A stretch of DNA of 47,720 nt, from IMG/VR virus record IMGVR_UViG_3300010042_000201, positions 1 through 47,720 of that record, one strand, 5' to 3'. The stretch comes from a virus. This document shows, in pieces, positions 1,193-39,955 of this stretch (position 1 is the first letter of the stretch; each line of letters opens with the position of its first letter). Made by a program: the position numbers and the translations under genes. A model generated the notes under the pieces. That model was not told the origin of the DNA and ran no database searches. It saw only the letters and a list, made by a program, of their open reading frames with translations.

Positions 1193-1940
1193 AGTTCGCA
1201 GGTCCCACCCACTTAGGCATCCGGAGATACGTCGGATCGAATTCGCCGATCTCCACCAGCAGGTCCCAATCTTTAATGGTGATCAGGTCGCGTTCCCAGC
1301 CCAATACGTTCTGGCTACGCAGCTTCTGAACGACGCGATTGGTGTGAACTGTCGATAAGGCCAAGCACTCACTGAGGATTATCTGATTGATCGGAAGATG
1401 GAAGCTGCCGTCTCTGTCAGCTTTGCCGATCTGAGCCAGCCGAAGATACATTTCGCAGACGAGGTGGGCGAGGTGCTGATGTCCTTGCAGGCTGCCCATG
1501 ACGAACGTCCAACGGCGATGGGCTCCTGCATCTATCAACGTGTTGAGCCAGAGCATCCGGGTAAGTCGCGGATGATCCTCCGTGATGCGAGCGAGCGCGG
1601 CATGGGATACCGTCGCAATGTGGCATGTGCTGATAGCGCCGATGCTATGATCCATGGGCTTCATCAAAAAGCTATGTAGGTCCACGAAGTCACCGGAAAC
1701 ATGAAGCGCGGTGATCTGCCGTTTCCCCTCAACGCTTATATTGTAGCGTCCAGCAAAACCGCTCAGCAGCAAGCAGCTGTGGTGCGACATCGTGCCTTCA
1801 GCCACAATGTCTTCGCCAGGGTGAATTTCTTGAATGCTCGAAGCGGCGTCCTCAAGGGACCGCTGTTCGTCGTTCGAAAGCTCCCCGTAATTCAGCAGCT
1901 TATTGAAGAGCGGTTGGACGACAGGCGTGGCGGAAGCCAT
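1152..1940 (-). CDS. Crp/Fnr-family transcriptional regulator
   Basis: A 262-residue protein with the usual Crp/Fnr layout. Residues about 25-115 form a cyclic-nucleotide-binding-type beta roll (HPGEDIVAEG, then HVSGDFVDLHSF). A long dimerisation helix follows, and then a winged helix-turn-helix at about 175-225 (LSECLALSTVHTNRVVQKLR). There is no N-terminal cysteine cluster like that of Fnr, so an iron-sulphur oxygen sensor is unlikely. Homologues of this shape are common in Hyphomicrobiales and regulate stress or nutrient genes; the effector here is unknown. It starts at an ATG and faces the long non-coding stretch 1941-2518, where its promoter must lie. Confidence 0.85.
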   Translation of the reverse strand: MASATPVVQPLFNKLLNYGELSNDEQRSLEDAASSIQEIHPGEDIVAEGTMSHHSCLLLSGFAGRYNISVEGKRQITALHVSGDFVDLHSFLMKPMDHSIGAISTCHIATVSHAALARITEDHPRLTRMLWLNTLIDAGAHRRWTFVMGSLQGHQHLAHLVCEMYLRLAQIGKADRDGSFHLPINQIILSECLALSTVHTNRVVQKLRSQNVLGWERDLITIKDWDLLVEIGEFDPTYLRMPKWVGPANSKSRVEFEPVVDG

Positions 1941-2518
1941 AGCGCTCCTCCCATTGGGGCAAGAGCAAAGACGCTTCTCTCAGCCGTTTGCGCCCTCAAA
2001 TGCTGCAAACGATGACCGGGAGGTTAGCACAATTAACATGGCCAAGGTTTTACCTGTGATACTTGGCAGCACTTTCTCCACAGCCGTTCTGCGAGAGCAG
2101 CACTAGAAGAAAGTCGGCACTCCTCTCGTATCCGGAGAGACTTGGGACAGCAGCAGGAGCGCGCAACAGCCGCTCCCCTACATTCGTTTTGGCTGCCTAA
2201 CTGCTCTTCTTCAGCTTTAATCCTGCAAGCGGGTGTGTTGGCCGAGGTCAGAATCCGATCGACGCAGCCAAGTCACCTTGAGCCTGCGCTAAGCCCGTGA
2301 ACAAACGAGCAATGGATTCGCCAACGAATTTGGAAAGTGCTACATACAATCAGTTTATCCGATTCTCGGATAGACAAACCGGCCCCCCGTGATCAGACGG
2401 AAAGCCGGTTTTTGGATCGTCCGAGCCGGTGAGGGCTCTAATTTGTGCACATGGGATTTATAGACACTACCGTGTCACTAAATCAAGACCTCATCGGCTC
2501 ATATCAAGGAAACTTTAT
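1941..2518. other. Non-coding interval between divergent genes
   Basis: No convincing gene is visible here. It separates the Crp/Fnr-type gene from the small HTH gene and must hold the promoters of both. It also contains two adjacent hairpins (2356-2413), listed separately. I looked for tRNA or other known RNA signatures and an FNR-type box and saw none. Confidence 0.5.
2356..2413 (+). terminator. Tandem hairpins with T-run
   Basis: The first element is a perfect 7-bp inverted repeat, TATCCGA-TTC-TCGGATA (2356-2372). Three bases later comes AAACCGGC (2376-2383), paired with GCCGGTTT (2404-2411) around an inner CCGT/ACGG stem, and the second arm runs into TTTTT. The second hairpin has the form of an intrinsic terminator read rightward. 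It lies about 105 bases before the HTH gene, so it could also be a leader structure or the end of a small RNA. Confidence 0.5.
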
Positions 2519-2719
2519 ATGACCGCAGTACCTCAGGAAACCTACCGGCTGACATATCAGGATGCCATCGACGTATGGTTGAGGCATGAAGCAGGAGAGT
2601 ACCAACACAACATTGCCGCCGCTTTTGGGGTAAACCCAGGTCGCATCAATGACGTGTTGAAGAGCAGAAAACACCTTGGTAGCGAGCAAGCGGCGTTGGC
2701 CCGCCGGAGTGCTGCATAA
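2519..2719 (+). CDS. Small helix-turn-helix protein
   Basis: A 66-residue protein. The ATG at 2519 has an AAGGAA about nine bases upstream, which favours it over the longer frame from 2429. Residues 26-47 read as a helix-turn-helix (NIAAAFGVNPGRINDVL), the type that samples DNA in small resolvase-like or sigma-like domains. Similar small proteins with a VNPGR-N-x-V-L signature are widespread in Rhizobiales without known function. Its stop overlaps the start of the next gene by one base (TAATG), so the two are translated together. A DNA-binding partner or regulator of the next protein is a reasonable guess. Confidence 0.65.
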   Translation: MTAVPQETYRLTYQDAIDVWLRHEAGEYQHNIAAAFGVNPGRINDVLKSRKHLGSEQAALARRSAA

Positions 2720-2997
2720 TGGCCAACTTTTTCGTCACTTACGACCTGAACGGCTCTCGCCCTTCTCATCGAGAGATGGACGACCATCTGCACAAGGTAA
2801 CAGCATATCGTGCGCGGGTGTTAGAAACCGTTTGGTGGGTCGATTATCACGGCACCGCTGGGGAGCTTCGCAATCAGGTCCAAACCATCCTGGGTAGAGA
2901 GGACCTCTTGTTGGTGATCGAAGCTAAGGATGCGGCATGGACCAACCTGCTCGTTGATAACAATGGGCTTATCAAAGCTTGGCGTAATGCCGCTTAA
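2719..2997 (+). CDS. Cas2/VapD-like fold (SinR-type) small protein
   Basis: A 92-residue protein starting with a strand of the type FFVTYDLN and carrying a tryptophan-rich second strand (VWWVDY). A later LLLVIEA strand is followed by an A-A-W motif. This succession (beta-Y-D-L, helix, W-containing beta, helix, beta) is what I associate with small SinR-annotated proteins of the Cas2/VapD ferredoxin-like superfamily. Members of that superfamily include CRISPR adaptation proteins and RNA-cleaving VapD toxins; most standalone copies are unstudied. It is coupled to the HTH gene upstream. There is no CRISPR array in the window, so a CRISPR role is unlikely. Confidence 0.6.
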   Translation: MANFFVTYDLNGSRPSHREMDDHLHKVTAYRARVLETVWWVDYHGTAGELRNQVQTILGREDLLLVIEAKDAAWTNLLVDNNGLIKAWRNAA

Positions 2998-3013
2998 CTC
3001 TGGGCATTAAAGC

Positions 3014-3041
3014 GGGAGAGCGTCGTCATCGACGCCCTCCC
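3014..3041 (+). terminator. Hairpin after the HTH/Cas2-like pair
   Basis: GGGAG-A-GCGTCG and CGACGC-C-CTCCC pair around a TCAT loop, giving a strong stem 17 bases after the stop codon of the preceding gene. The following bases (TTGTCG) form only a weak T-tract. It may also serve the convergent minus-strand gene that ends at 3066. Confidence 0.5.
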
Positions 3042-3065
3042 TTGTCGTCGCAATCAAAACGCGCC

Positions 3066-3377
3066 TTAATAAAACTCATTCTTCCATAGCCGGATTGTCC
3101 GCATGCCGGCAGGGCGGCGCAGCATAAGGCTGCCGCGATCATGCTCCGTCACAACAATGAAGTGCACCGCCATGCGACCGCTGACGCGACAATGCCCGCA
3201 GCGAGGCGGCGGCTCATACACCTTCATCTCCTCGCCCCAGATATCGACAACGTCAGCCGCTAGGAACGTGGTCTGCCGCTTACACGCCCGACACGTGTAA
3301 ACGAGCGCTCGACTGTCTTCGACGAGGTGCTTGAGGCGAACAGCATCGAGCTTGCGCCTGCTGGGCGTCATGCTCAT
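3066..3377 (-). CDS. Small zinc-ribbon-like protein
   Basis: A 103-residue basic protein with two cysteine pairs, C-R-A-C near residue 30 and C-G-H-C near residue 60. That spacing suits a zinc ribbon. The C-terminal half is rich in Arg and aromatic residues and could contact nucleic acid. Related short proteins occur in Hyphomicrobiales genomes and phages without known role. Its ATG overlaps the stop of the small upstream gene by four bases (ATGA), so the two form a coupled unit. Confidence 0.55.
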   Translation of the reverse strand: MSMTPSRRKLDAVRLKHLVEDSRALVYTCRACKRQTTFLAADVVDIWGEEMKVYEPPPRCGHCRVSGRMAVHFIVVTEHDRGSLMLRRPAGMRTIRLWKNEFY

Positions 3378-8868: not shown

Positions 8869-11493
8869 CTATCCCCAGAGATCGAGTGTGGTGACGCCGG
8901 AGCTGAACTTTTCGCCCATGCCGATCACCATGAAAGACTTGCCGGCATCGAGCCCGAAGCGGTTGAGTTCGAGGCGCACGACTGTGCCGAGGTCGACCTG
9001 TTCGACGACAAAGCTCTTGACCGGCACCTGCAGGCGATCGCGCCGCACCGAATGCAGCGCCAGTTGCCGATCTGCTTCTGCCTGGGCGTCAGCCTCGTTG
9101 ATGAAATAGCTGTCAAAGGTCAGTTCCGGCGACAGCCGATGCGCCGCCTTGACGCTGGGGGCCTCAGCAACGGCCAGCCGCCATTCTTCCCCCGCAAAGG
9201 CTTTGAACGCGTCTGGCGCCCCCGCCGCGAGGTCATTGCGGTTGAGCACGCTGTAATTGCGGGCATAGCGCATGTTGACGCGCCATGCTGGCACGCCCCT
9301 GCCCTGGTCGCCGGTCGCGAGCATCTGGATGCCACGCCCGCTTTCGAGGATCTCGCTGCGGGTCAGCGTGATCGGCGGATGCGCAGTCGGCGCGCCAAAC
9401 CGGATCATGCGGAAGATGCCCAAGCGATCGGGCATGATGGTGGCGCCGATCGAGCCCAGCACCTCCTGCACCGCCGTCAGCGTCTGCGTCTCGTCGGCCC
9501 CCACCCAATAGCCGAGCGGGGCGCTGTTGAGCGCATCGAGCGCCGCAACATCGCTGGCGAGAAAGTCCGTGCCCTCGACAAAGCCCTTGGCCAGCAACAT
9601 GCGCCGCGCGATCTGCGCCGCCGATCGCAGCCCTGTACTCGCCCCTTCCACCGGCTTTACCGTCAATTGCCCGGCCGGCACCGATCCGGTCCGGACGAGG
9701 CCGAGGTTCAGGGCCGTCGCATAATAGCCGGCTGAGATCGTCGCGGCGCGCAAGGCGGCCACGGTGGTGTAGTTCGCGCCCATGGCCGTCAGAGCAACGC
9801 CTCGGTCCCGCACCTCGGCAATGGAAGAAAGACCGTTCTGCCCCACGGCATAGACCCGGTCGGGAATGTTGGCGGCCAGTGCCGGCACCAGTTGTGGCTC
9901 GCCCCAGGTCATGGGCTTGGGGCGGCCCTTGAGATCGTCCGGACGCCCCTCGGCTTCGTTCATTCCCCCGGCGATCGTCGTGCCGGCAAAGAGCGCGCTT
10001 TGTAGCGGCACGTCGAGTTCGGCCAGTCGGTCGCGCAGGCGCACCGTCGCCTTGAACCAGCTCAGTTCGACCTGTTCCGTCGTGCCCTCGAAAACCAGCA
10101 CGGCGTCGTCATAACTGGGCCTGATTGTGTCGACCGTCCGGATGCGCAGGCTATAACCGTCAAAGGCATAATTGCGCAGTCCGTCGAGCTGGCCGTCATT
10201 GACGAGTTCGATATAGCCCGCCCCCACCGAGATCTGGCCATGCGTCGTGCCCTGCGAAAACAGCGCGCGCTCGTAATTGCCCGGCTCCTTGATGGCCGGG
10301 GTGAAAGGCTGGTTCGGCAGGCTGTCGGTTGGCGAAGTGTTGAAGCCGATCGAGCTGAAATAGAGCGTCGTTTCCTCGTCGGCCAGCATGTCATAGGCGT
10401 CGAGTTCGATCAGATACGAGATGCCCTTGGAGGCATCGCGCGGCACGATATAGGTGTAGCCCTCCGAATTGCCCTGGCCGGCAAAGTTGTCGGCACCCTG
10501 CTCTGTCGCTGCCAGCGTGCCGGCAACGATCGGCTGGCCCGCAAAATTGGGAACGTCCCCTTCATTGGCTTCGACGGCCGCCAATGTGCCAGGCACCGTG
10601 GAGAGCCCAACGATCGCAGCCTGGTCGGCTCCGGCCTCGACCGGCGCCAAGACACCCTCGACGAGGGATCGTCCGGTGAAAACGCCGCTATCCTCGCCCT
10701 CTTCCTGCAGGGCAAAGCTGCCGGCGACGAGGGGCGAACCGATGAACCCGGCACTGTCTGCCCCGGCCTCGACAACGACAAAGCCGCCTGTGATCGGCAA
10801 GATGCCCGTGATCGCGACCACATCAAGGGTCGCCTCGACCGCGGCTACATGGCCATAAATCGAGGATGTGCCCCCAAAACTGGCGCTGTCATCGCCGATT
10901 TCCCTGACATTGAGCGCGCCGTCGCTCGCAGCCGTGCCTGCAAAATTGGCGCTGTCCGCCCCGGCTTCGACAGCGGCCACGAAGCCGACGATGTCAACCA
11001 CGCCGACCATCGCGACCAGGTCAACCGTGGCCTCGGCAATCGCCATGATGCCGCTGACCACGGAGACGCCGGCAAATTCACCACGATCCGTGCCGACTTC
11101 TGCGACAACCAGCGCGCCGGAGGCAATTGGCCCGCCGATAAAGAACGCGACGTCATTGCCGACTTCGACGGCATCGAGACGGTTGGCAGGCGGCGCCAAC
11201 GTCTGGAAGGCGCCGATCTGGAAAGCGCCCGGCTGGAAGGCCGGCAAGAGCCCCGTGCCCTCGCCGAAAAAAACATCATCGCCACTTTCGACGGCCGACA
11301 TCGTGCCGGTGATAGCGGGCGCACCAGCAAAGGCCGCACCATCTTCACCATTCTCGTTTGCGGCGATGATGCCGGTGACGGTGGACGTGCCGCCGCCGGC
11401 AAAGCTGTCGTCTCCTGTTTCCGTGACGATGATGGCGCCCGTATTGGACACCTGAAACGCGCCCTCCTGGAAGGCGCCGACTTGGAAGGCCAT
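8869..11493 (-). CDS. Tail-tip protein with 22-residue repeats
   Basis: An 874-residue protein in two parts. Residues 2-15 and 85-98 are runs of A-F-Q-x-G. From about 19 to 341 the chain consists of roughly fourteen degenerate repeats of 22 residues. Each begins Gly-x-(Leu/Ile/Val), then Ala-x-x-Glu-x-Gly-x-Asp, and ends in Phe-x-Gly. After residue 345 the protein is a normal mixed fold (about 530 residues) with tail-hub character. Its position among the distal tail genes and its size suggest the central tail-tip or receptor-binding component, comparable in position to lambda J, though I see no clear J homology. The repeats probably form a beta solenoid or fibrous spacer. Confidence 0.65.
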   Translation of the reverse strand: MAFQVGAFQEGAFQVSNTGAIIVTETGDDSFAGGGTSTVTGIIAANENGEDGAAFAGAPAITGTMSAVESGDDVFFGEGTGLLPAFQPGAFQIGAFQTLAPPANRLDAVEVGNDVAFFIGGPIASGALVVAEVGTDRGEFAGVSVVSGIMAIAEATVDLVAMVGVVDIVGFVAAVEAGADSANFAGTAASDGALNVREIGDDSASFGGTSSIYGHVAAVEATLDVVAITGILPITGGFVVVEAGADSAGFIGSPLVAGSFALQEEGEDSGVFTGRSLVEGVLAPVEAGADQAAIVGLSTVPGTLAAVEANEGDVPNFAGQPIVAGTLAATEQGADNFAGQGNSEGYTYIVPRDASKGISYLIELDAYDMLADEETTLYFSSIGFNTSPTDSLPNQPFTPAIKEPGNYERALFSQGTTHGQISVGAGYIELVNDGQLDGLRNYAFDGYSLRIRTVDTIRPSYDDAVLVFEGTTEQVELSWFKATVRLRDRLAELDVPLQSALFAGTTIAGGMNEAEGRPDDLKGRPKPMTWGEPQLVPALAANIPDRVYAVGQNGLSSIAEVRDRGVALTAMGANYTTVAALRAATISAGYYATALNLGLVRTGSVPAGQLTVKPVEGASTGLRSAAQIARRMLLAKGFVEGTDFLASDVAALDALNSAPLGYWVGADETQTLTAVQEVLGSIGATIMPDRLGIFRMIRFGAPTAHPPITLTRSEILESGRGIQMLATGDQGRGVPAWRVNMRYARNYSVLNRNDLAAGAPDAFKAFAGEEWRLAVAEAPSVKAAHRLSPELTFDSYFINEADAQAEADRQLALHSVRRDRLQVPVKSFVVEQVDLGTVVRLELNRFGLDAGKSFMVIGMGEKFSSGVTTLDLWG

Positions 11494-11559
11494 CGGGCAA
11501 GGGCTCCGGTTAGAGCGTCAACCGGGGAACCCCGATCCGGTTTTTGTTCTGGGCAGGCG

Positions 11560-11940
11560 TCACCAGCGGTCGATACCGGCAATGATGGCTGCGGTTTGCA
11601 GCAGCCGGCGCCATAAGCACACGCCGAGCGCCTTCATCGCTTGGTAGGCCAAGCCTGCCGCTTCCAGCTGCCGTTCCGGTCCCCAGGTCATGAGGACGAA
11701 ATCATGCAACACATAGGCCTTGGCGCATTGTGGATCGGCCGGACTAAACAGCCAACGAGCCCACCACGGGATGGAGCCGAGATCAGTGATGAAGTGGGCC
11801 GGGACGATAATCTCGCTCGTCACCGTGCCCGCAGCGTCCCGCACCTCCCAGATCAGCGGATCCGCCAGCGCCCAGGTCCATAGGCCGGTATCGGCGGCTT
11901 GAAAGGGATAGAGCGCGCCGTGAGAGGTAAAACGGCTCAT
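11560..11940 (-). CDS. DUF1353 family phage protein
   Basis: From the ATG at 11940 the product has 126 residues. The segment F-I-T-D-L-G-S-I-P-W-W near residues 50-60 and a following H-D-F motif mark DUF1353, a small family found in phage tail regions. Its biochemical role is unknown; a peptidase-like function has been suggested for related proteins but not shown here. The start overlaps the stop of the DUF4376-type gene by four bases (ATGA), which decides it over the frame's earlier codons. Confidence 0.75.
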   Translation of the reverse strand: MSRFTSHGALYPFQAADTGLWTWALADPLIWEVRDAAGTVTSEIIVPAHFITDLGSIPWWARWLFSPADPQCAKAYVLHDFVLMTWGPERQLEAAGLAYQAMKALGVCLWRRLLQTAAIIAGIDRW

Positions 11941-12617
11941 TCCTGACCTGGCCACCCTGTTTCGATGGCTGCATCGATCTCGTCGAGATCGTCATGCGTG
12001 CTGGCATTGTCGATCGCGTCCTGCTTCGCCCAAGAGGTTTGGAACAGCGATGAGGCCCAGGCCTGCATCGTCAGCAGCACGGCCAAGCCATCCTGATAAC
12101 TCATCGTGATCGTCTCGTTCGCCTCGGTGCGGATCTTCGCCTCTTCGACTGCACCCTGTCCCAGCATCACGGCAGCGGTATAGGCGCCTTGGCTGGCGAG
12201 CCAGTTGCGGGCGTCATCGGTGCCATCGCGCAATTGCAACACCTGTTCGCCGATAGCGCTGCCGAAGTCATGGTGGTAACCGGCATTGAGCAGGGTCGCA
12301 CCGAACGCTTTGACCTTGTCCTTGAGCGCGGGACGCCGCTCGGCCAGCGTGCGGTTGTGGATGGTATAGGTTGCCGTGACGCTGGTAGGTCCCACTGTCC
12401 AGAACCCGGTTGCCCGCTGGGTGACATATTGCCGGGCCGGGTTGTGCTCGGGCGGCTCTTCGACCACCGGGAGCAAGCCAAAGGACGCAAACTCGGCTTC
12501 ATCCGCGTTCGGATCAAGCATGATCGCCGGATCGCCCTGTGCAAGCTTTTTTCGGAATTGGCTCTTGGAAAAAGGATAAGCGCTCACCGCGCCGTTTTCG
12601 ACGTGTGCGTAATTCAT
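11937..12617 (-). CDS. DUF4376-containing tail fibre assembly-type protein
   Basis: A 226-residue protein. The N-terminal part (MNYAHVENG..AYPFSKSQFR) resembles small phage proteins that accompany fibres. Residues about 105-220 match the DUF4376 pattern: F-G-S-A-I-G-E-Q-V-L-Q-L, then W-L-A-S-Q-G-A-Y-T-A-A, then a helical end. DUF4376 is common next to tail fibres and is usually regarded as a fibre-assembly or attachment module. The gene lies directly behind the DUF7483-type fibre gene, which supports that reading. Confidence 0.7.
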   Translation of the reverse strand: MNYAHVENGAVSAYPFSKSQFRKKLAQGDPAIMLDPNADEAEFASFGLLPVVEEPPEHNPARQYVTQRATGFWTVGPTSVTATYTIHNRTLAERRPALKDKVKAFGATLLNAGYHHDFGSAIGEQVLQLRDGTDDARNWLASQGAYTAAVMLGQGAVEEAKIRTEANETITMSYQDGLAVLLTMQAWASSLFQTSWAKQDAIDNASTHDDLDEIDAAIETGWPGQE

Positions 12618-12642
12618 GACGATGTCCTGAGGTTAGGTGAGG

Positions 12643-13593
12643 CTAGGCGCGGATGAGCATCGCAATGTAGGTCTGGGAGGCTGAAAGGCCTGCGAAACTG
12701 ATCGTGCCTGCGCTCTCAGAAATGCGCGTAACGGTATCCTCGGCGTTGGTGAGGTTTGGTAGCAGTCGCAGGTCAGTGGTCCATCCTGGCGATCGTGAAC
12801 GATCATACATCTCCCAATCACCGGTCAAGGTGATGCACTTCAGCATCGCAAATTGCGAGCCTCCAGCCCAGCCGTGAGCGTAGGAGCCGGCATTCGAGCC
12901 GTTGGTGGTAAAGATTCCGCACTGGATATTGCCGCCTGGTGCTGCATCGTGTGCCCAAGCATTGAGAACGTATGAGCCAGTTGAAGCGGATGCCGAAAAG
13001 GTCAGCGTCGTTCCACTCACTGCCACATAGGCGTCAGATGTCGACTGAGCATCTGCAGCGTTCAGCTTCAGATTGTTGCCGCCAGTCAGCGCGCGGTGCC
13101 AAGCATACCAATCGGACGTGCTGTCAGTCCTCTTGATGGTGGCAAAGCCAACCACTCCGAGATCGGAAAGGTCAATAGTGCTTGCCACCCCATTCGTATG
13201 GCTAAAGGTCACTATGTCGAAATAATTGGGTGCTTCTCGCCACTGCCAACCAACAAATGTTTCACCAGTACCATTTGCCGCGAAAGTAGTATCAAGATTG
13301 TAACCAGAAGAGCCGAACGCAACAACACCGTCATCAAATTGATTTCCGAGTGTGTTATTCGAACTAAGAACGACGCCGGCACCTCGAACAGTGTCTACTA
13401 GAAATTGCTTATAAACACCGGATCGAGATTTGACCCAGACAAGCGATTTATTAGCTGCGGCGTCTATTCCGGTCGTAATGGTTCGACCCGCACTAATCCC
13501 CGTCCAAATCGAGGCATTAAACACTTCGCTGACGTCGAGTCCTGTCTCCTGCGCCATCAGCAGCTTTTTCTTTGCCTGCAACATCAGGCTCAC
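12643..13593 (-). CDS. DUF7483-type tail fibre/receptor-binding protein
   Basis: The preferred start is a GTG at 13593 that overlaps the preceding stop by three bases (GTGA context); an ATG at 13584 is possible. The 316-residue product carries the features of phage lectin-like DUF7483 domains: S-L-V-W-V-K-S-R, then a D-T-V-R-G-A motif, L-S-S-N-N-T, and T-F-V-G-W-Q-W. These beta-sandwich domains are found at the ends of fibres. The gene is visibly richer in A and T than its neighbours, especially 13100-13500, as expected for an exchanged receptor-binding module. Confidence 0.7.
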   Translation of the reverse strand: MSLMLQAKKKLLMAQETGLDVSEVFNASIWTGISAGRTITTGIDAAANKSLVWVKSRSGVYKQFLVDTVRGAGVVLSSNNTLGNQFDDGVVAFGSSGYNLDTTFAANGTGETFVGWQWREAPNYFDIVTFSHTNGVASTIDLSDLGVVGFATIKRTDSTSDWYAWHRALTGGNNLKLNAADAQSTSDAYVAVSGTTLTFSASASTGSYVLNAWAHDAAPGGNIQCGIFTTNGSNAGSYAHGWAGGSQFAMLKCITLTGDWEMYDRSRSPGWTTDLRLLPNLTNAEDTVTRISESAGTISFAGLSASQTYIAMLIRA

Positions 13594-14852
13594 GCCGCAT
13601 ACTCCCCGGCCGCAGCGCGCCAGGTCGTGCCACCGTTCTGCGTGGTAAAGATGATCTCGTAGACCTTGCCGCCCGTAAACGTGGGCGCCGCGCCACCCAC
13701 CCAGTTGACGCCCGAGAACCAGGTGATCGTCCCTGACGTATAGGTGAGCACCAGCCGCAGGTGATAGGCCTTGCTCGACGGCACGTTGGAGACGGTGAAG
13801 GTCGAGTTTCCCGCAATGGTCTTGGTAAACTCGTTGCCGAGGGCACAATCCAGAGCCAGGGCTGCGACGGCCGTCACCGTGCCGGCGACCTGTCCGAACT
13901 GCTGCGCTGCGCTCCAGGTCTGGGCTGCATTGGTTTTGGCCGTATTCGCATCAAAGGCCTGCACGTTGGTGCCGATGACGAGGCCCAGCAGCGTCCGCAT
14001 CGCCGCGTAGTCCGCAGCGGAGATCAGCGATCGCCCGTTGACCGAGGCGTTGGTGATGTCGGCCACCGTGATCGCCAGCAGGGTCTTCATTGCCGCGTAA
14101 TTGGCGGCTTTGACCAGTGCCGCGCCGTTTGCGGTTAGACCCAGATTGGTGAGCGCCGTTGCTGCATTGGCCAGGTCCGACAGATTGTTCGCGGCGATAA
14201 GGCGAGCCGCGATCGCAGCGTTCACCGTGGCCGCGAAATTGGGATCGTCGCCCAGCGCCGCTGCCAGCTCGTTGAGCGTATCGATTGCGCCGGGCGCCCC
14301 ATCGATCAACGCAGCGACGGCCGCCGTCACAAAGGCAGTCGTCGCTAGGCGGGTTGTATTGTTCCCCGCCGTCTGTGTTGGCGCAGTCGGATTGCCGGTG
14401 AAATCCGGTGAAGCAAGAGGCGCCTTGGCGTCGAGCGCGCTCTGCGCGAGTGTCGAGATGGGTTTGGCGGCGTCTGAGGTGTTATCGACGTTGCCCAACC
14501 CAAAGTCGGCTTTGACTGCATTTGCCCACGCGATTGAGCCTGCCGTAGAGCCGGCCTTCAGGAACTTGCCATCGTTGGTTGTGCTGGTCGCCGGAACATG
14601 CAGGTTGCCGTCGCCAGTCGGGTGCGCGTAATTATTCGCCCCATCGGCGACATTGATGAACGTACGGACTTGCGTGGCCGTTAGCTCTTCCGCCGCGCCG
14701 GCATCGGCCGTGACCCGCCCGACAATGCGAGCCGTGGCCATGGTGAAATTGGAGCCCTCAGCAAACCGGCTCGGCGTCAACTGCCCTGAAGCGGTCGCCG
14801 CCGGATCGTCGGCGATCTCGATCTCGAATTTGGGCGTGATGGCAATGGTCAT
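13590..14852 (-). CDS. Tail fibre protein
   Basis: A 420-residue protein rich in Ala, Thr and Asn. It shows typical fibre features: V-A-D-G-A-N-N-Y-A-H-P-T-G-D-G near residue 70, the L-A-S-P-D-F-T-G-N-P-T-A-P-T motif common in fibre shafts near 150, and N-N-L-S-D-L-A-N-A-A-T-A repeats after residue 220. The C-terminal 80 residues are a small beta domain (TFTVSNV, then VYEIIFTTQNGGTTWRA). It has no chaperone autoprocessing motif that I can see. The downstream DUF7483 gene probably forms the distal tip. Confidence 0.75.
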   Translation of the reverse strand: MTIAITPKFEIEIADDPAATASGQLTPSRFAEGSNFTMATARIVGRVTADAGAAEELTATQVRTFINVADGANNYAHPTGDGNLHVPATSTTNDGKFLKAGSTAGSIAWANAVKADFGLGNVDNTSDAAKPISTLAQSALDAKAPLASPDFTGNPTAPTQTAGNNTTRLATTAFVTAAVAALIDGAPGAIDTLNELAAALGDDPNFAATVNAAIAARLIAANNLSDLANAATALTNLGLTANGAALVKAANYAAMKTLLAITVADITNASVNGRSLISAADYAAMRTLLGLVIGTNVQAFDANTAKTNAAQTWSAAQQFGQVAGTVTAVAALALDCALGNEFTKTIAGNSTFTVSNVPSSKAYHLRLVLTYTSGTITWFSGVNWVGGAAPTFTGGKVYEIIFTTQNGGTTWRAAAGEYAA

Positions 14853-14880
14853 GGTCTAATGCCTCCCCGACGCCCGAGCC

Positions 14881-15267
14881 TTAGCTCGGGTCCGGCGCAT
14901 GCGTGATGGTGGAAGTGGTGAGCGTTACGTCCTGGCCCTCCGAGATCGAGGTATTGACCAGTTCGATGTCCGCTTCCGAACCGGAGCCGCCGACCGTCAG
15001 GCCCGAAAGCCCCACCGTGCCGCCCGATGTCTTGAACCTTGCCTTGGCGGCCACAGTGCCTGGCCCGGCCGCTTCGAGGCCCGCAACCGTGGCGCTGTCA
15101 TAGACCGGCGTCCACACTGCGCCAGCAATGTCGCCACCATCGGCTTCGAGGCCAAAGATGGCCAACACCACATCGCCGGCCGAAAGCAGTTCCAGCGAGC
15201 CATTCGCGAAGTAGTTACGGGTCGCATTCATGCGGGCGGTTTTCACCGCCGTCGAATAGATGATCAT
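14881..15267 (-). CDS. Small phage structural protein
   Basis: A 128-residue protein starting at an ATG, with a short helix (TARMNATRNYFANGS) followed by beta-rich, Gly/Thr-rich sequence. The opening M-I-I-Y-S-T-A-V-K-T-A-R-M-N-A-T-R is familiar from short proteins beside fibre genes in Rhizobiales prophages. Function unknown; a minor tail or fibre-connector role is inferred from position. Confidence 0.6.
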   Translation of the reverse strand: MIIYSTAVKTARMNATRNYFANGSLELLSAGDVVLAIFGLEADGGDIAGAVWTPVYDSATVAGLEAAGPGTVAAKARFKTSGGTVGLSGLTVGGSGSEADIELVNTSISEGQDVTLTTSTITHAPDPS

Positions 15268-15367
15268 GGGGTTTTCCTTCCAGAAATGAACGAAGTCGCC
15301 CGGCCGCCAGGGAAACGGCCGGTTGTTTCAGAACTTGAAAATTAGAGGTGTAGGCTGGTTCTCTTAC

Positions 15368-15637
15368 CTAGCCATATTTCCGATCATAGACGGCGTGTCG
15401 GCACACATCGATCAGGTCGAACGTATGTGTCGCACTCTGCGTCATCACAATTCGATAGTTTCCATCGACGCGAGCACTCCAATAAATCGAACCGCCTTTA
15501 AGCTTCTTGAAGTGCAGGTGAGCCGCAGGAGGGTCCAGCAGAAGCTGCTTCAATGCGATCCGGATCAACTCTCGAACCGTGCCATCTTGCTTGGCAACGG
15601 CCCTGTCGAAGGCCTTCGTACGATTGAACTTCACCAT
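15368..15637 (-). CDS. RelE/ParE-like toxin candidate
   Basis: An 89-residue basic protein with the RelE/ParE layout. An N-terminal helical pair (residues 5-35) is followed by K-L-K-G-G-S-I-Y-W-S-A-R-V-D-G-N-Y-R-I-V and a last strand ending D-V-C-R-H-A-V-Y. RelE-fold toxins cut mRNA on the ribosome or, in the ParE branch, poison gyrase. The central Arg residues and the C-terminal H-x-x-Y are in place. It starts two bases after the stop of its partner gene. The pair lies inside the tail operon, between tape measure and fibre genes, in visibly more AT-rich DNA. Confidence 0.7.
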   Translation of the reverse strand: MVKFNRTKAFDRAVAKQDGTVRELIRIALKQLLLDPPAAHLHFKKLKGGSIYWSARVDGNYRIVMTQSATHTFDLIDVCRHAVYDRKYG

Positions 15638-15638
15638 G

Positions 15639-16217
15639 TCAGTTCAGATCGTTGAAGTAGGAGTCGATATCCTCGTCGTTGGAAAGCACACCTGTGACCG
15701 TCCGTGTATCCCGGTCATTGTCCCAGATTAATTCCAGAGTGTGCTCGCGCAATTCACCGGCGGTCTTGAGATGTTTTGCGAAAACGAGCTTCTGACGCCG
15801 GATCAGTTCGGTGACCAACTTTTTCGCAGAGGGGTTTCGGGCCGCTACCCGCCGCAGCCGAAGTTCACGATCGTCGGCCTCCTGCTGGCCATCAGAAAGC
15901 ATTGAAATCGCTTCATCTATCGAGTTTACGAGGACTGGCAGACCAGTGCTCACCAGATAGTCAGCGATTGCCGCAAAATCCGCGTCGTTGGAAAAGGCAG
16001 TGATTAGCGCACGGACATTCGACAGAGACGTCTCTACTCGATCCCGCCACTTATTCATCGAAATATTGAAGTCCTCGGTGCCTTGGAGGGCGCGGCGCGC
16101 TGAACCTTCAACAGAGGCCGGCTCAACCATGGGGCCAGCCGCGGACTGGTAGTCGGTTGGGGCTGCCACGTCTGCAACCAACCGCTCGAAATCCTCTTTG
16201 AAAGCTGGCAGGCCCAT
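15639..16217 (-). CDS. Partner of RelE-like toxin, unfamiliar family
   Basis: A 192-residue acidic, helical protein with no recognised DNA-binding domain. The last 15 residues (V-L-S-N-D-E-D-I-D-S-Y-F-N-D-L-N) resemble the acidic toxin-wrapping tails of antitoxins. It is almost directly followed by the toxin gene, the usual antitoxin-toxin order. Compared with the 70-100 residues of classical antitoxins it is about twice as long. A 78-base gap separates it from the tape-measure gene and contains a palindrome that could be an operator. Being an antitoxin is inferred from position only. Confidence 0.5.
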   Translation of the reverse strand: MGLPAFKEDFERLVADVAAPTDYQSAAGPMVEPASVEGSARRALQGTEDFNISMNKWRDRVETSLSNVRALITAFSNDADFAAIADYLVSTGLPVLVNSIDEAISMLSDGQQEADDRELRLRRVAARNPSAKKLVTELIRRQKLVFAKHLKTAGELREHTLELIWDNDRDTRTVTGVLSNDEDIDSYFNDLN

Positions 16218-16268
16218 GAGTGCATCCTTCTCCGAACTCTGATTTAGCGGTTCGAGAATGCGACAGCA

Positions 16269-16278
16269 ACGTTAACGT
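16269..16278. promoter_or_regulatory. Palindrome in front of the toxin-antitoxin pair
   Basis: ACGTTAACGT is a perfect 10-bp palindrome about 50 bases before the start of the putative antitoxin gene, in the only sizeable gap of this part of the late operon. It is a candidate autoregulatory operator. A single short palindrome can occur by chance. Confidence 0.3.
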
Positions 16279-16295
16279 CGACATCACTCTTCCCC

Positions 16296-19200
16296 CTATC
16301 GACCGCTATTGGCGCGCTTCAATTCGCCCGCCAGATCCGCGACATCGGCATTGCCTTCGCGCAGCAACTTTCGGGTCTCTTCATCCGACAGGCCGACGAG
16401 TTGCGCGAGCTTGCTGACTGCCGCAATCAACTGCTGACTGTCCTGCCGCAGACTGCGCAGCTCGGCAACGACCTCGCTATTGTCATTGCCGGGCACCGAG
16501 CCCAAGCGGTTGATATGGTCGAGCACCGGCCGCGTCGCGGGATTGACCGACGTGGCCCGCGTCACATGCTCGCCACCGGCCAGGGCAATATTGCCGCCGC
16601 CGGCATAACGCGCCAGCACGCTGTCGACATTCCAGAGCCCATTGCCCACCATGCCGCCGCCGGCATAGGCGCCGACGATCCCGCCCATGGCCATGGCGCC
16701 GTGCTGCTTGGCCCAGATCAGGTCCGCTTCGATCTGCGCCATCGACTTGCCCGACGAGGTCCACCAACCGATTTCCGAAGCGCTGCCGGTGCGGCCCAGA
16801 ATGGACTTGTAGAAGTCCTGCACCTGGTTGCTGCCCTGGCTTTGCGTGGCCATGATCTGCGCCTGCAGCGCCGCGTCACGCGCGCCCATGGCAGCCGTCA
16901 GCCCGGCGATCGCTGCCCCCACCGAAAGCACGGATTGATCGATGCTGATCAGCGCCCCGATCTGCCGGTCAAGCGCCTCTCGCTGCCGCTGGGCTTCGCT
17001 CAACTGCCGCCCGGCCTGCCCCTCGATGCCCGCCAGGGTCTGGTCGATCTCCGTCCAGATGGCGGCATAGGCCGCGCTCGAGGCGTGGTATTCCCGCGCC
17101 TCGTCGCGCGCCGTCTGTGAAATGTCCACCAGGCGATCCTGGGCGCCCTGATCCCCGCCGGCAGCAAGAGCCGCCGTCTCGCGGAACAGGCGCATAGCAT
17201 CCTCCGCCTGTTGCTGCTGCCCGAGCGGCGAACTGGCATCAAACCGCATGTCCTCACGGACTTTCCGGATCGATTGCCCGAACCGCTCCAGCCGTGAAAT
17301 CGTCTGGTCGATCTCGCTGCGCTGCGCCTCATAGCTCGACCGCAAGGCCGCCTCGGCATCGGCAACGCTCTGCATCGCGCCTTGCCCAGCCAGCGTTTCG
17401 ATCAAGCTCGACATCAACGGGAAGGCAGTCGCCAGCATATCGATCTGGGCCTGGCTCAACCCTGCCGATTTGACCACGCCGGCCAGCGACAGGTTCAGTT
17501 CCTGCAGGGCCAGCGAGCCATCGATCCCGAGCGCCGCACCGTCCCTCAGTCGCTCCTGATATTTCGATTGGGCGTCGATGATCTCATTGAGAAAGCCGAA
17601 CCCGGACAGTTCATTGATCGAGGTGTTCAGGTCGCCAAGATACTCATCCCTCAGCTTGGCCAAGGCCGTGTTGAGCGCGCCGGAAATCGCATTGGCCGCA
17701 TCGCCGGCAGACATCCCGAGCTGCTCAAGCGTCACCTGCAGACCCGACGCGCGACCCTCGGCCTCCGCAACCTTCTTTTCCATCTCGGTCAGCTCTTCGG
17801 CACCCGACAACACCGAAAGGGCAAAATCCTGCGCCGACCGACGCGCCCGGGCGAGGTCCTCGGCCACCTGCGCGCCATTATCGATTCCGGCGAGTTCGCC
17901 GAGCTTGTTGCCCATGAACTCGGTATCGGCAACGAACGCTTTCAACTCCTCGCGCAGACCAACGATCTGCTGCTGCGCCGAGACGAAGGCGCCGCCCATC
18001 CCCTGCCCGCTCGATAGCGCATCGAGCGTGCCCTCGAAGCCAAGCCGGAAATCCTTGTCGAGCTGCAGGAAGAAGGTGTTGACCGCATCCTGCAGGCGCT
18101 TTTGCAGCGCACCATCCTGCGCCTTGGCTGCCAGCGCCTGATATTCGTGGCTCTTGTCCCAGAAGTCGCGAAACGCCTGCGCCATCTGGCCGACGCCGCG
18201 ACCTTCGCCGACATCGAGCAGGCTGTCTATCGCGCCGCGCGCCGTATTGAGCTTGTCTTTGGCCTCTTCCAGCGCCTGGTTCATGCCGAACAGGCCACCG
18301 ATGAAACCACCGATGCCGCCCAGCACCATGCCGATCGGCCCTGCCGACATGCCCGAAAGCGCCCCACCCACGGCGCCCATGATGGGCGACTGGGTCTGGT
18401 ACCCGATCCCAAGCCCGCCGAGGCCGGCGCCAAGCCCGTTCGCCAGGGCATTGCCATTGGCGCCGCCACCGAGAATGTTCGACAGGCCGTCGAAGATCCC
18501 GCCCGACGCACCGGCCTCGGTGCCGCGCGCCGCGCCGCGCTCGACTGCCTTGGCCAGGCCGTCGGTATTGCCGAAGAGCATGTCCATCGAGGCCGACAGG
18601 TTCGCCTGCCCCATCTGCCCGAGGCCCGACATCACCCGGTTCATCAGGTCGTCGAAATCCTCGATCGGTGATGAAAACAGGTCACTCAGCACCGAGCCGA
18701 GCGTCTCCTGCAGTGCATCGGCCATGTTCCGGGCCGCATCCTTCGTCGTCGCCTCGAGGCGCCGCACGCCAATTTCAGATGCCGCGAACAGATCGCCGAT
18801 TTCCGCCTGCACCGCCTGGCGCTGGAAATCGTCGAGCGCCTGCCCATGCTGCTCGAGAAGAGCCTGCAGCTCCTCTGCTTCTCGTCGCGCATATTCGCCG
18901 GGGAACAGGGCTTCGGCCAGCTTGTCGGCCGTCGAGATGAAACTGTTGAAGTCTTTTTCGGCCGCCTTCAGTGCCTTTGCCGCGCCGCCCGACGCCGCCG
19001 CGGTTTGGTCGAACTGGGCATTGGTATTGGCGAGCGCCACGGCGAGCTGTTCATTGTTCTGCGCAAGAAGAGCAGCCCGTTCGGCAGGCGCGGCCAGTGA
19101 CAGGCCTTCGATCTGCTTTGCCTGTTCGGCATACTGCTGGTTGACCTGTGCGAGCGCCTGCTCTCGACCAGTCAGGGCAGCGATGCTGTTCTGCGCTGTC

Positions 19201-20624
19201 TGAGAAGCAAGCTGCTCTTCCAGGGCCGAGACCCCTGAAATCGCGTCTTTGGCCTGGTCATACCGAGTGGCGGTTTCCGCGATGCGCTCATTGTATTCCG
19301 CGCGGTTGATTGCGCCCAGGCGCAGCAGGTCACCAGCGGCAGTCTCGGCATTGGTAAAGGCTTGCTCGGCCCGCCCCATGTCGGCCATTGCCGCCTGCTG
19401 CGCAGCGACCTGGGGAATGAGGCTGCCAAGAGCGAAAAGCGCATTGGCATAGGCATTCGCCGCACCCGTCGCCGTGCCGTACTGGCTGGCGGCAACAACG
19501 GCAGCATCGCCTGAATTACGGATGGCCCAGGCGGAAGCATCAGCTGCCCGGGCAAGCTGATGGTTCCAGTCGGTCAACTCGGCAGTGATCTGCGACCATG
19601 CCTGCATGCCAGATAGGTCTTGAAAGCCATAATCGAGCGCTGCGCGTGTTTCCTCGGACTGGGCGCGCAGGAACATAAGCTGCTGGGCCAATTTATAGAC
19701 GTCATCGGCCATCTGCTGGATCGTCGGTTCGTCGCTCGAGTCCCAGAGTTCCTTGGCGGCAATGGCGGCACTTTCAAGCTCCTGCTGGGTGCTCTTCGCC
19801 GACAAGCTCAGTTTCTCAAGAAACTCCACCTGTTCGGCATATTTCCCGAAATTGCCTGCCCCCTCCCCCGCCATCTGCCCTGAGGCTTCGATCTCTCGAA
19901 GGAAACGCGCCGTAGCCGCGATGCTTTCGCGCGTTTGCAGGATATTGAAGCCGAGGATCTCTGCCTGCTCGGCCTGTTCCTTGAGACCAGCCTGCAGTTC
20001 CAGACGAACAATGGCGTCCGGAAGCCGCGCAGCTTCCTCCCCAGCCAGCCGCGCCGCTTCGCGCATGCCATCGTAGCCAGCAAGGATCTTGTTGAGCCAT
20101 TCGCCATGACGCTCGAGCGCGCGCTCGGCACCCTGCGCGCTTTCTTGCGACGAGGTGAACCACTGGATTGCCGCGGCGCCGAGCGCGACAAACCCGATAG
20201 TCAGGAGTGAGACCGGGTTGATGATCGACATGAACGCGACTGCCAGCCCCTTGAGCGGGTTCTGCATCGTGTTCAGCACAGCACTCAACTGCGTGCCCTG
20301 CTGCAGCGCAATCATAATAGGGTTCATACCCATGGCGGCTGTGACGCCGATATCCTGGAACTGCGCGGCAATATTGGCTGTGCTGCCGGCGGCGTTGTCG
20401 TTCGCCGCTGCCAGCCGTCTCAGGGCCTGTGCCTGCTCGTCGATGGCTCGGGCACTTCGCTGTGCCGCCTCGGCCATGCGCGCACTGGCAGAACCTGAGC
20501 CGCGCCCGAGGGCGGCCATGGCCGCATCTGCCATGCGGGCCGAAGCCGACATCTTCTGCAGCGACGTGTCGGCTCTGTCCGCGCCGGTTGTATCGGCGCG
20601 GATCACAACGTTTAGCAGGTCCAT
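16296..20624 (-). CDS. Tail length tape-measure protein
   Basis: At 1442 residues this is the largest protein of the window. The first 150 residues (DLLNVVIRADTTGADRADTSLQKMSA, broken here as the family start) are the usual tape-measure N-terminus. Hydrophobic Gly/Ala-rich segments occur near 110-150 and 690-790 (G-A-V-G-G-A-L-S-G-M and G-M-V-L-G-G-I-G-G-F-I-G-G-L-F-G). Most of the rest is coiled coil. Tape-measure proteins set tail length and help deliver DNA through the inner membrane. The preceding genes are the tail chaperones, as expected. The length predicts a tail of roughly 200 nm by the usual 0.15 nm per residue rule, an inference only. Confidence 0.9.
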   Translation of the reverse strand: MDLLNVVIRADTTGADRADTSLQKMSASARMADAAMAALGRGSGSASARMAEAAQRSARAIDEQAQALRRLAAANDNAAGSTANIAAQFQDIGVTAAMGMNPIMIALQQGTQLSAVLNTMQNPLKGLAVAFMSIINPVSLLTIGFVALGAAAIQWFTSSQESAQGAERALERHGEWLNKILAGYDGMREAARLAGEEAARLPDAIVRLELQAGLKEQAEQAEILGFNILQTRESIAATARFLREIEASGQMAGEGAGNFGKYAEQVEFLEKLSLSAKSTQQELESAAIAAKELWDSSDEPTIQQMADDVYKLAQQLMFLRAQSEETRAALDYGFQDLSGMQAWSQITAELTDWNHQLARAADASAWAIRNSGDAAVVAASQYGTATGAANAYANALFALGSLIPQVAAQQAAMADMGRAEQAFTNAETAAGDLLRLGAINRAEYNERIAETATRYDQAKDAISGVSALEEQLASQTAQNSIAALTGREQALAQVNQQYAEQAKQIEGLSLAAPAERAALLAQNNEQLAVALANTNAQFDQTAAASGGAAKALKAAEKDFNSFISTADKLAEALFPGEYARREAEELQALLEQHGQALDDFQRQAVQAEIGDLFAASEIGVRRLEATTKDAARNMADALQETLGSVLSDLFSSPIEDFDDLMNRVMSGLGQMGQANLSASMDMLFGNTDGLAKAVERGAARGTEAGASGGIFDGLSNILGGGANGNALANGLGAGLGGLGIGYQTQSPIMGAVGGALSGMSAGPIGMVLGGIGGFIGGLFGMNQALEEAKDKLNTARGAIDSLLDVGEGRGVGQMAQAFRDFWDKSHEYQALAAKAQDGALQKRLQDAVNTFFLQLDKDFRLGFEGTLDALSSGQGMGGAFVSAQQQIVGLREELKAFVADTEFMGNKLGELAGIDNGAQVAEDLARARRSAQDFALSVLSGAEELTEMEKKVAEAEGRASGLQVTLEQLGMSAGDAANAISGALNTALAKLRDEYLGDLNTSINELSGFGFLNEIIDAQSKYQERLRDGAALGIDGSLALQELNLSLAGVVKSAGLSQAQIDMLATAFPLMSSLIETLAGQGAMQSVADAEAALRSSYEAQRSEIDQTISRLERFGQSIRKVREDMRFDASSPLGQQQQAEDAMRLFRETAALAAGGDQGAQDRLVDISQTARDEAREYHASSAAYAAIWTEIDQTLAGIEGQAGRQLSEAQRQREALDRQIGALISIDQSVLSVGAAIAGLTAAMGARDAALQAQIMATQSQGSNQVQDFYKSILGRTGSASEIGWWTSSGKSMAQIEADLIWAKQHGAMAMGGIVGAYAGGGMVGNGLWNVDSVLARYAGGGNIALAGGEHVTRATSVNPATRPVLDHINRLGSVPGNDNSEVVAELRSLRQDSQQLIAAVSKLAQLVGLSDEETRKLLREGNADVADLAGELKRANSGR

Positions 20625-36376: not shown

Positions 36377-36681
36377 CGCTTGCACCATTCGACGCACCGA
36401 AACGGCAACATCGGCTCTTCATCGCCACCGTTGGGATCGTCCATCCAGAACCCGAAATGCGGACAGCCTTGGTCATTATGGCGCTGCTCTTCCTCAGGGT
36501 TTTCGCCCTCGTGGAAGCACTCGCAGCCGTCCTCGGTCCACATGCCGAAGGCATTGAGGTAGAAGCCATCGACTTCCTCGATCGCGCTGCCATCGGCGAG
36601 CGAACCGCGCATACGCACGGCGAGGCGCGTGCCTTCGGCGGTCTGCGGCTTCTCGCCGGCAGATTTCCATTCGCCCGTCAT
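36373..36681 (-). CDS. Acidic cysteine-containing hypothetical protein
   Basis: A 102-residue acidic protein with four cysteines, two close together (D-G-C-E-C-F) and two near the end (C-P and C-V-E-W-C). It starts at an ATG in an ATGA overlap with the methyltransferase gene. It may bind a metal. Function unknown. Confidence 0.55.
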   Translation of the reverse strand: MTGEWKSAGEKPQTAEGTRLAVRMRGSLADGSAIEEVDGFYLNAFGMWTEDGCECFHEGENPEEEQRHNDQGCPHFGFWMDDPNGGDEEPMLPFRCVEWCKR

Positions 36682-39314: not shown

Positions 39315-39955
39315 GCTGCACCGCCAGCGTGTTCGGCCTCGGCCCATCCACCCCACTGGTCTGCCATTGCGTTCGCAACGCCAGGGAAAAATCGGCTGCG
39401 CTCTTTCTGGCGAGCGGGACCGGGCGGCATACGCCACACGCGATGAACGATGACTTCCGGTTTGACAGGATGGGTCGGCACCAGATTTGGCAGACCCTTC
39501 AACCACAGACATGTGCGCTTCGCCTCGCCGTCGCCAAACTGCCACGGCTGGATGGACTGCGAATGCACTTGAAAGTTGGTGATGCGGGCCTTCGCGTGCC
39601 GGTGCATTACCGGGTTCTCGATCGCAATGCGCTCGATTGGCGCATTCCAGCATGCAGAGAACAGGGCGGCGCCTTCATCGAGGTCCTGCCACATCTGCTC
39701 GAGAGTCTTTCCTGACGGCGGCGCAGTGAGCCAACGAACGCCGGAATTGCACAACCGGGTGCAGGGCGGGTGCGCGACCATCAGCAGGTCCCACCCGTCG
39801 CCCAGCAAAGTGCGCACGTCCCCTATGATGTGGCGATTTGAATGGTCTTCTGCCGGTAGCAGATCGCAAGACCAAGCATCATGACCGCGCGCGGCAAAGG
39901 CCCGGCGCACAATCCCGGAAAACTCGCAGGCGACAAGAACGCGAAGTGCTTTCAT
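39311..39955 (-). CDS. Cytosine-methyltransferase-like phage protein
   Basis: A 214-residue protein opening with a SAM-type motif (L-V-A-C-E-F-S-G-I-V-R-R-A-F). It then has H-P-P-C-T (62-66), like the catalytic P-C loop of C5 methylases, and I-E-N-P (112-115), like the ENV motif. It is half the usual length and seems to lack the target-recognition part. Similar short proteins are common in phages and their activity is not established. It lies directly before the helicase-methylase gene. Confidence 0.7.
   Translation of the reverse strand: MKALRVLVACEFSGIVRRAFAARGHDAWSCDLLPAEDHSNRHIIGDVRTLLGDGWDLLMVAHPPCTRLCNSGVRWLTAPPSGKTLEQMWQDLDEGAALFSACWNAPIERIAIENPVMHRHAKARITNFQVHSQSIQPWQFGDGEAKRTCLWLKGLPNLVPTHPVKPEVIVHRVWRMPPGPARQKERSRFFPGVANAMADQWGGWAEAEHAGGAA

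What the first reader, a model, noticed from the sequence alone, without database searches (positions are those of the whole stretch)
15368..16278. Toxin-antitoxin-like pair inserted in the tail operon, with an unfamiliar long partner
A RelE/ParE-like gene follows a 192-residue gene of no recognised family by one base, in visibly AT-richer DNA, between tape measure and fibre genes. A palindrome lies in the gap before it. Classical RelE antitoxins are half as long and carry a DNA-binding domain. This may be a new type of antitoxin family, or a late-expressed toxin used against competitors or the host.
Basis: partly seen in the sequence, partly recalled or inferred. Interest (0 to 1): 0.7.

Follow-up and report, generated by a model that had tools for sequence, protein, structure and literature searches.

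The report
Phage RelE toxin, long helical partner
A temperate phage carries, among its tail genes, a RelE-type growth-arresting toxin gene paired with an unusually long all-helical partner gene that no protein-family library describes; the same kind of pair sits beside the tape-measure gene of a second phage and in the chromosomes of ten bacteria, so it is probably a new antitoxin family rather than a one-off.

Summary
Window 15368-15637 (-) encodes an 89-aa RelE-fold toxin (model pLDDT 91.5; best solved match RelE, Z 11.5). One base upstream ends a 192-aa gene matching no Pfam, NCBIfam, PHROG or PADLOC family. The pair is AT-richer (54.7% vs 62% GC), lies between tape-measure and fibre genes, and is absent at that junction in three related phage contigs. 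The palindrome exists (16269-16278) but is weak evidence. The pair is not unique. A second virus contig (L083) carries a homologous 193-aa partner (0 of 2000 shuffles reach its score) plus toxin, also next to the tape measure. Ten bacterial genomes carry twelve pairs of RelE toxin and long helical partner; four were found by the partner profile alone, and all four are followed by a toxin (one cut off by a contig end). P0001's best matches are toxins with long partners. P0002 is predicted as a three-helix bundle with a loose C-terminal tail; in the bacterial family the last 40 residues are the most conserved part. Best reading: a type II toxin-antitoxin module with an undescribed long antitoxin family, acting as a phage moron. 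Neutralisation, toxicity and timing are untested; sequence homology of P0002 to the bacterial partners alone is weak.

The parts
15368..15637 (-). RelE-superfamily toxin gene (P0001, 89 aa)
   Evidence: PHROG 1213 E 1.3e-7; AF2 pLDDT 91.5; Foldseek and VIA top matches nearly all RelE/YoeB/YafQ-type toxins, Z 11.5 to 2khe; R56, R62, H81 and Y84 invariant in the long-partner toxins of A6
15639..16217 (-). long helical partner, candidate antitoxin (P0002, 192 aa)
   Evidence: no convincing family in Pfam, NCBIfam, PHROGs, PADLOC; homologous to the L083 partner (BLASTP 9e-5; 0 of 2000 shuffles); AF2 three-helix bundle plus low-confidence C-tail
15639..15713 (-). C-terminal tail of the partner (residues about 169-192), proposed toxin-binding segment
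   Evidence: pLDDT about 45; colinear with the C-terminal motif of the bacterial partners; last 40 residues are the best conserved part in bacterial partner pairs
16218..16295 (-). 78-nt gap before the pair, with palindrome ACGTTAACGT at 16269-16278 (possible operator, weak)
   Evidence: no sigma-70 promoter or terminator found
15268..15367 (-). 100-nt gap after the pair, with a GC-rich hairpin but no T-run
16296..20624 (-). tape-measure gene, upstream neighbour in the tail operon
   Evidence: PF06791 E 1.8e-12; several PHROG tape-measure families

Best explanation
The two genes form a type II toxin-antitoxin module carried by the phage as a moron. The toxin is a small RelE-fold protein, most likely a translation inhibitor of the RelE/YoeB/YafQ kind. 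The partner, made first from the same transcript, is the antitoxin: a three-helix bundle (residues about 33-167) that most likely holds the complex together, with a flexible C-terminal tail that folds onto the toxin and blocks it. It belongs to a long-antitoxin family not described in the libraries searched. In the lysogen the pair most likely keeps the prophage from being lost (addiction) and/or arrests a cell invaded by another phage when antitoxin is depleted. Shown here: gene order, toxin fold, partner homology to a second phage's partner, constant pairing with a RelE toxin in other genomes, purifying selection on both genes in bacterial relatives. Inferred: toxicity, neutralisation by the tail, expression in the lysogen, biological role.
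For: Toxin: PHROG RelE match, RelE-fold model with Z 11.5 to T. thermophilus RelE. Pairing: in a second phage contig and ten bacterial genomes the long partner lies directly upstream of a RelE toxin, by 4-nt overlap to 4-nt gap. Blind test: a profile of partners alone found four new copies (L091, L117, L118, L119), each followed by a toxin, that of L091 being truncated; no strong orphan partner was seen. P0001's five best matches among 30 toxins with mixed partner types are all long-partner toxins. P0002 and the L083 partner are homologous along their length, and both pairs adjoin a tape-measure gene. Selection: dN/dS about 0.23-0.33 for the partner and 0.12-0.19 for the toxin in bacterial relatives. 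The last 40 residues are more conserved than the body in each bacterial pair tested, and the tail is low-confidence in the model, as expected of a tail that folds on its toxin. Related phages lack the pair at this junction.
Against: No expression, toxicity or binding data. The link between P0002 and the bacterial long partners rests mainly on synteny, toxin kinship and a short C-terminal motif: sequence-only tests give P of about 0.002-0.014, so the phage and bacterial partners could be two convergent families. No promoter was found for the pair, so it may be transcribed only with the late genes. The AF2 model of P0002 rests on two sequences, and generic three-helix matches carry no functional information.
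Confidence: 0.72

Rival explanations
1. Superinfection defence module: the partner's helical bundle is also a sensor for a component of an incoming phage, such as its tape measure or tail chaperone, which displaces the antitoxin and frees the toxin.
For: The pair adjoins the tape measure in two phages, and a third RelE pair with a different partner sits in the same zone in L084. A prophage late-operon moron, Tab, is constitutively expressed in the lysogen and targets the tape measure of invading phages (PMC10884400).
Against: Position alone does not show sensing. The bacterial pairs are, where neighbours were seen, beside housekeeping-type genes. No PADLOC match.
Confidence: 0.12
2. Late-expressed host-takeover toxin: the pair is transcribed with the tail genes and the toxin cuts mRNA late in lysis.
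For: Same strand as the late operon, no promoter of its own found.
Against: The antitoxin-like partner is made first and translation is probably coupled; 78- and 100-nt gaps flank the pair; related phages do without it; chromosomal copies exist in bacteria.
Confidence: 0.05
3. The partner is not an antitoxin but a neighbouring tail or assembly protein, and the toxin is an orphan.
For: No known antitoxin family match; long helical proteins are common in tail operons.
Against: The same partner-toxin order occurs in bacterial chromosomes without tail genes beside it; four of four blind partner hits are followed by a toxin; the L083 partner and toxin genes overlap by one base.
Confidence: 0.05
4. 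Degenerate moron: the toxin is inactive and the pair is a remnant.
For: The window pair has no close relative with which to measure selection.
Against: Both frames are intact, the toxin folds confidently, and arginine, histidine and tyrosine positions conserved in relatives are kept.
Confidence: 0.06

Closest known systems
RelBE / YefM-YoeB / DinJ-YafQ type II toxin-antitoxin modules
   Same: toxin fold (Z about 10-11.5), antitoxin gene first, tightly coupled genes
   Different: antitoxin is about twice as long, predicted three-helix bundle, no RHH, HTH or Phd match
PF24732 ParE_like toxins with 66-80-aa partners (for example L035, L039, L063)
   Same: nearest toxin relatives outside the long-partner group
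   Different: their partners are short proteins, many with a 'WDxQIExDAxxGxLD' segment, unlike P0002
PaaA2-ParE2
   Same: RelE-superfamily toxin whose antitoxin lacks a DNA-binding domain (own knowledge; structures among the fold matches)
   Different: PaaA2 is short and works in a three-gene operon with PaaR2 (own knowledge); here two genes and a long bundle
RelE pairs of Nitratiruptor phages NrS-1/NrS-2 and Sulfuricurvum plasmid pSULKU02
   Same: phage or plasmid RelE toxin preceded by a longer than usual helical-looking partner (119-129 aa)
   Different: shorter, no shared C-terminal motif, not in the tail region in NrS-1
Tab, late-operon defence moron of Pseudomonas phage JBD26 (PMC10884400)
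   Same: moron inside a late operon, expressed in the lysogen
   Different: a single 83-residue protein that blocks tail assembly, not a toxin-antitoxin pair

Membership tests
RelE/ParE superfamily (toxin) | RelE fold | tested here: met
   AF2 pLDDT 91.5; Foldseek 37 matches at E<=0.001, nearly all toxins of RelE-type modules; VIA Z 11.5, rmsd 2.2 over 82 residues to T. thermophilus RelE
RelE/ParE superfamily (toxin) | profile match to a RelE family | tested here: met
   PHROG 1213 E 1.3e-7
Pfam PF24732 ParE_like | score over the curated cut-off | tested here: not met
   21.5 bits against 24.4
RelE mRNA interferases | ribosome-dependent mRNA cleavage | not testable with these tools
   conserved R56, R62, H81, Y84 are compatible, but the target (ribosome or gyrase) is open
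type II toxin-antitoxin module | two adjacent co-directional genes, partner conserved with toxin | tested here: met
type II toxin-antitoxin module | toxin inhibits growth, antitoxin protein binds and neutralises it | not testable with these tools
   needs expression experiments
type II toxin-antitoxin module | antitoxin has a DNA-binding domain and autoregulates | tested here: inconclusive
   no profile match to a DNA-binding family; palindrome not shared with relatives; some type II antitoxins lack such a domain
RelBE module proper | RelB-type (RHH) antitoxin | tested here: not met
   no RelB/RHH match; predicted long helices and no strand
HigBA module | toxin gene first, HTH antitoxin second | tested here: not met
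   partner gene is first and has no HTH match
long-partner family defined here (bacterial members L033, L034, L036, L041, L046, L065, L025, L091, L117-L119) | 165-200-aa helical partner directly upstream of a RelE toxin | tested here: met
long-partner family defined here (bacterial members L033, L034, L036, L041, L046, L065, L025, L091, L117-L119) | significant sequence similarity to the bacterial partners | tested here: inconclusive
   colinear C-terminal match; 3 of 2000 and 19 of 3000 shuffles score as high; hhalign P 0.0015-0.014

The most novel reading that the evidence does not exclude
The partner is both antitoxin and sensor: its helical bundle recognises a tail-assembly component (tape measure or chaperone) of a superinfecting phage, which frees the RelE toxin and aborts the infection. 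This would explain why such pairs lie next to tape-measure genes.
Probability: 0.1. Interest if true: 0.8.

Novelty: new variant of a known kind. Interest (0 to 1): 0.52.

Why it matters
RelE toxins are among the most widespread bacterial toxins, and a 2009 genome survey lists mainly HTH, RHH and StbD/axe-type partners for them (PMC2701414). A long three-helix partner family absent from all four libraries searched would widen how RelE toxins are known to be controlled, and gives annotators a rule for finding more. Its position beside the tape measure makes a concrete question testable: whether phages park toxin-antitoxin pairs there for prophage upkeep or for defence against other phages.

Tried and rejected
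tblastn of P0002 and of P0001 in phages and plasmids, and the search for related loci of P0002 in virus and genome contigs and of P0001 in virus contigs: no relatives. P0002 alone in 397 genomes of the order around a related prophage's host: only weak coiled-coil-like matches; two examined (L017, L019) are not pairs. L020 and L025 partners and the L041 partner against plasmids: none. A5 profile against virus contigs: none. Single-sequence and degenerate-pattern scans for more phage copies found only L083 again or unrelated DNA. Shared operator: no palindrome common to the operons. Hairpin hiding the ribosome-binding site: folding no better than shuffles. Fold of P0002: Foldseek best E 0.08 in PDB and 0.18 in BFVD, and VIA Z up to 13.5 only to generic helical bundles, about the level the tool warns of; not interpreted. 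Makarova 2009 and the other papers searched show no matching family; most subscription papers are not held, so a description there cannot be excluded.

Full report
WHAT IS THERE. The window is a 47,720-base virus record of a temperate lambda-like siphophage: gpA terminase, lambda portal, ClpP-like head protease, gpE capsid, tape measure, tail fibre, integrase. Its terminase is closest among the genome contigs found to Mesorhizobium, Rhizobium and Ensifer (56-65%), so the host is probably a member of Rhizobiales or a neighbour. The tail operon runs on the minus strand. Between the tape measure (16296-20624) and a 128-aa structural gene plus fibre lie two genes: a 192-aa gene (15639-16217) and, one base later, an 89-aa gene (15368-15637). 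They are AT-richer than their neighbours (54.7% vs 62%; GC3 0.62-0.63 vs 0.77). In three related phage contigs with about 50% identical tape measures (L005, L006, L007; L006 and L007 appear to carry the same sequence here) the tape measure is followed at once by the homologue of window 8869-11493; the pair and the fibre block (11494-16295) are not at that junction. So the pair is a variable insertion, possibly together with the fibre block.

THE TOXIN. P0001 matches PHROG 1213 RelE-like toxin (1.3e-7) and, under the cut-off, PF24732. A model from four sequences has pLDDT 91.5; its Foldseek matches are RelE, YoeB, YafQ, HigB and ParE2 toxins, with VIA Z 11.5, rmsd 2.2 over 82 residues to T. thermophilus RelE. 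Nine positions are invariant in the A6 alignment, including R56, R62, H81 and Y84, the kind of residues RelE-type RNases use (general knowledge). Whether it hits the ribosome or gyrase is open.

THE PARTNER IS NOT UNIQUE. P0002 alone found nothing. The route went through the toxin. A toxin profile (A3) in 299 genomes of one phylum found many RelE toxins. Reading the gene before each showed several partner types: 66-83-aa proteins, Phd-like proteins of 84-100 aa, RHH-like proteins of 79-84 aa, and a set of 165-197-aa helical-looking proteins (L033/L020, L034, L036 twice, L041, L046, L065; L025 came from a family search). Type names other than the long set are by eye. These long partners end in a shared motif of the form R-x-x-R-[FW]-x-L-M...S-x-E-D-V-x-x-F-F. 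None convincingly matches Pfam, NCBIfam or PHROGs. P0001's five best BLAST matches among 30 such toxins all have long partners; in the tree P0001 is a long branch whose place is not resolved.

A SECOND PHAGE. A search of virus contigs with the toxin alignment A6 returned L083 (IMGVR_UViG_3300002938_000013), whose toxin is 40% identical to P0001. It is preceded, with one base of overlap, by a 193-aa gene, and the pair lies between two tail-chaperone-like genes and a tape-measure-like gene (these neighbours were named by position, size and look, not by a family search). The 193-aa protein is homologous to P0002: BLASTP 9e-5 over the full length, Smith-Waterman 77 against a maximum of 57 in 2000 shuffles. 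In L084 a RelE pair with a different 206-aa partner sits on the opposite strand in what looks like a Mu-like tail region. Three phages thus keep a RelE pair in this zone.

BLIND TEST OF THE PAIRING. A profile of ten partners (A8) was run on 60 genomes and then on one class (48 genomes, overlapping) and one order (11 genomes). It recovered the known copies and four new ones: L091, L117, L118, L119. Each is followed by a RelE toxin at -4 to +4 nt; in L091 only the toxin's N-terminal part is seen before a frame change and the contig end. L117, L118, L119 and L025 come from one order, so they are not independent events; L117, L119 and L025 also share the upstream gene. No partner match at E<1e-4 lacked a toxin. 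Bacterial total: twelve pairs in ten genomes. Between close relatives the partner has dN/dS about 0.23-0.33 and the toxin 0.12-0.19: both are constrained, the partner less so, as is usual for antitoxins.

STRUCTURE OF THE PARTNER. With the L083 row as its only alignment, P0002 is predicted (pLDDT 76.9, pTM 0.71) as long helices 33-75, 81-126 and 129-167, with a tail 168-192 mostly at pLDDT about 45. In four pairs of bacterial partners the last 40 residues are more alike than the body: 0.80 vs 0.61, 0.98 vs 0.67, 0.60 vs 0.30, 0.52 vs 0.24. A rigid bundle plus a loose but conserved tail is what an antitoxin with a toxin-wrapping tail looks like; this is inference. No solved fold stands out.

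HOW SURE IS THE LINK TO THE BACTERIAL FAMILY. By sequence alone it is weak: P0002 scores 4.7-7.3 bits against bacterial profiles, with 3 of 2000 or 19 of 3000 shuffles as high, and hhalign P is 0.0015-0.014. The match is colinear and ends at both C-termini, P0002 is the best of the window's listed ORFs, the gene order is the same and the toxins are closest kin. I think common origin is likely (about 75%), but a separate phage family with the same architecture is possible. The claim of a long-partner RelE pair does not depend on it, because P0002 and L083 already make a phage family of two.

REGULATION. The palindrome is real but 0.11 are expected by chance in a gap of this length, and no related operon shares it. 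No sigma-70 promoter or terminator was found; the GC-rich hairpin after the toxin has no T-run. Promoters of this host may differ from the consensus used.

MECHANISM. Most likely: toxin-antitoxin complex in the lysogen; loss of the prophage or collapse of antitoxin synthesis frees a RelE-type toxin that stops growth. Toxicity, neutralisation, expression and role are inferred. Precedent for a late-operon moron expressed in the lysogen is Tab of phage JBD26 (PMC10884400). A sensor role against incoming tails is attractive because of the location but has no direct support.

NOVELTY. The kind (type II toxin-antitoxin) is known; the long partner family is not in the libraries or papers that could be searched. 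It is therefore a new variant of a known kind. Whether unsearched literature describes it is not known.

Noticed in passing
L084:2322-3216: Another RelE pair with a 206-aa partner in a Mu-like tail region, on the strand opposite to the tail genes; the partner's C-terminal part resembles the 66-76-aa antitoxins (EWDRQMYRDIESGRF).
   Followed up: partly
L031:1628-2279 and L032:1628-2279: Nitratiruptor phages NrS-1 and NrS-2 carry a RelE toxin preceded by a 129-aa helical-looking partner, similar by eye to the 119-aa partner on Sulfuricurvum plasmid pSULKU02 (L028); another partner type outside the family libraries.
   Followed up: partly
L050, L053, L055, L056, L062 (also L066): RelE-like domains at the N-terminus of about 700-residue open frames in several genomes; plasmid matches of the same toxin in Thermus are annotated as 3'-5' exonuclease. 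A RelE domain fused to a large enzyme was not followed.
   Followed up: no
L036:902-2756: Two tandem copies of the long-partner toxin-antitoxin pair one after the other in one bacterial contig.
   Followed up: no
36678-39653: 991-aa open frame joining a phage DNA helicase (PHROG 16) to a DNA methyltransferase (PF01555).
   Followed up: no
1500-3300 and 12500-13850: Two other stretches as AT-rich as the pair; the second covers the 401-aa DUF7483 structural gene, the first has small ORFs with almost no family matches (one PHROG 1090).
   Followed up: partly
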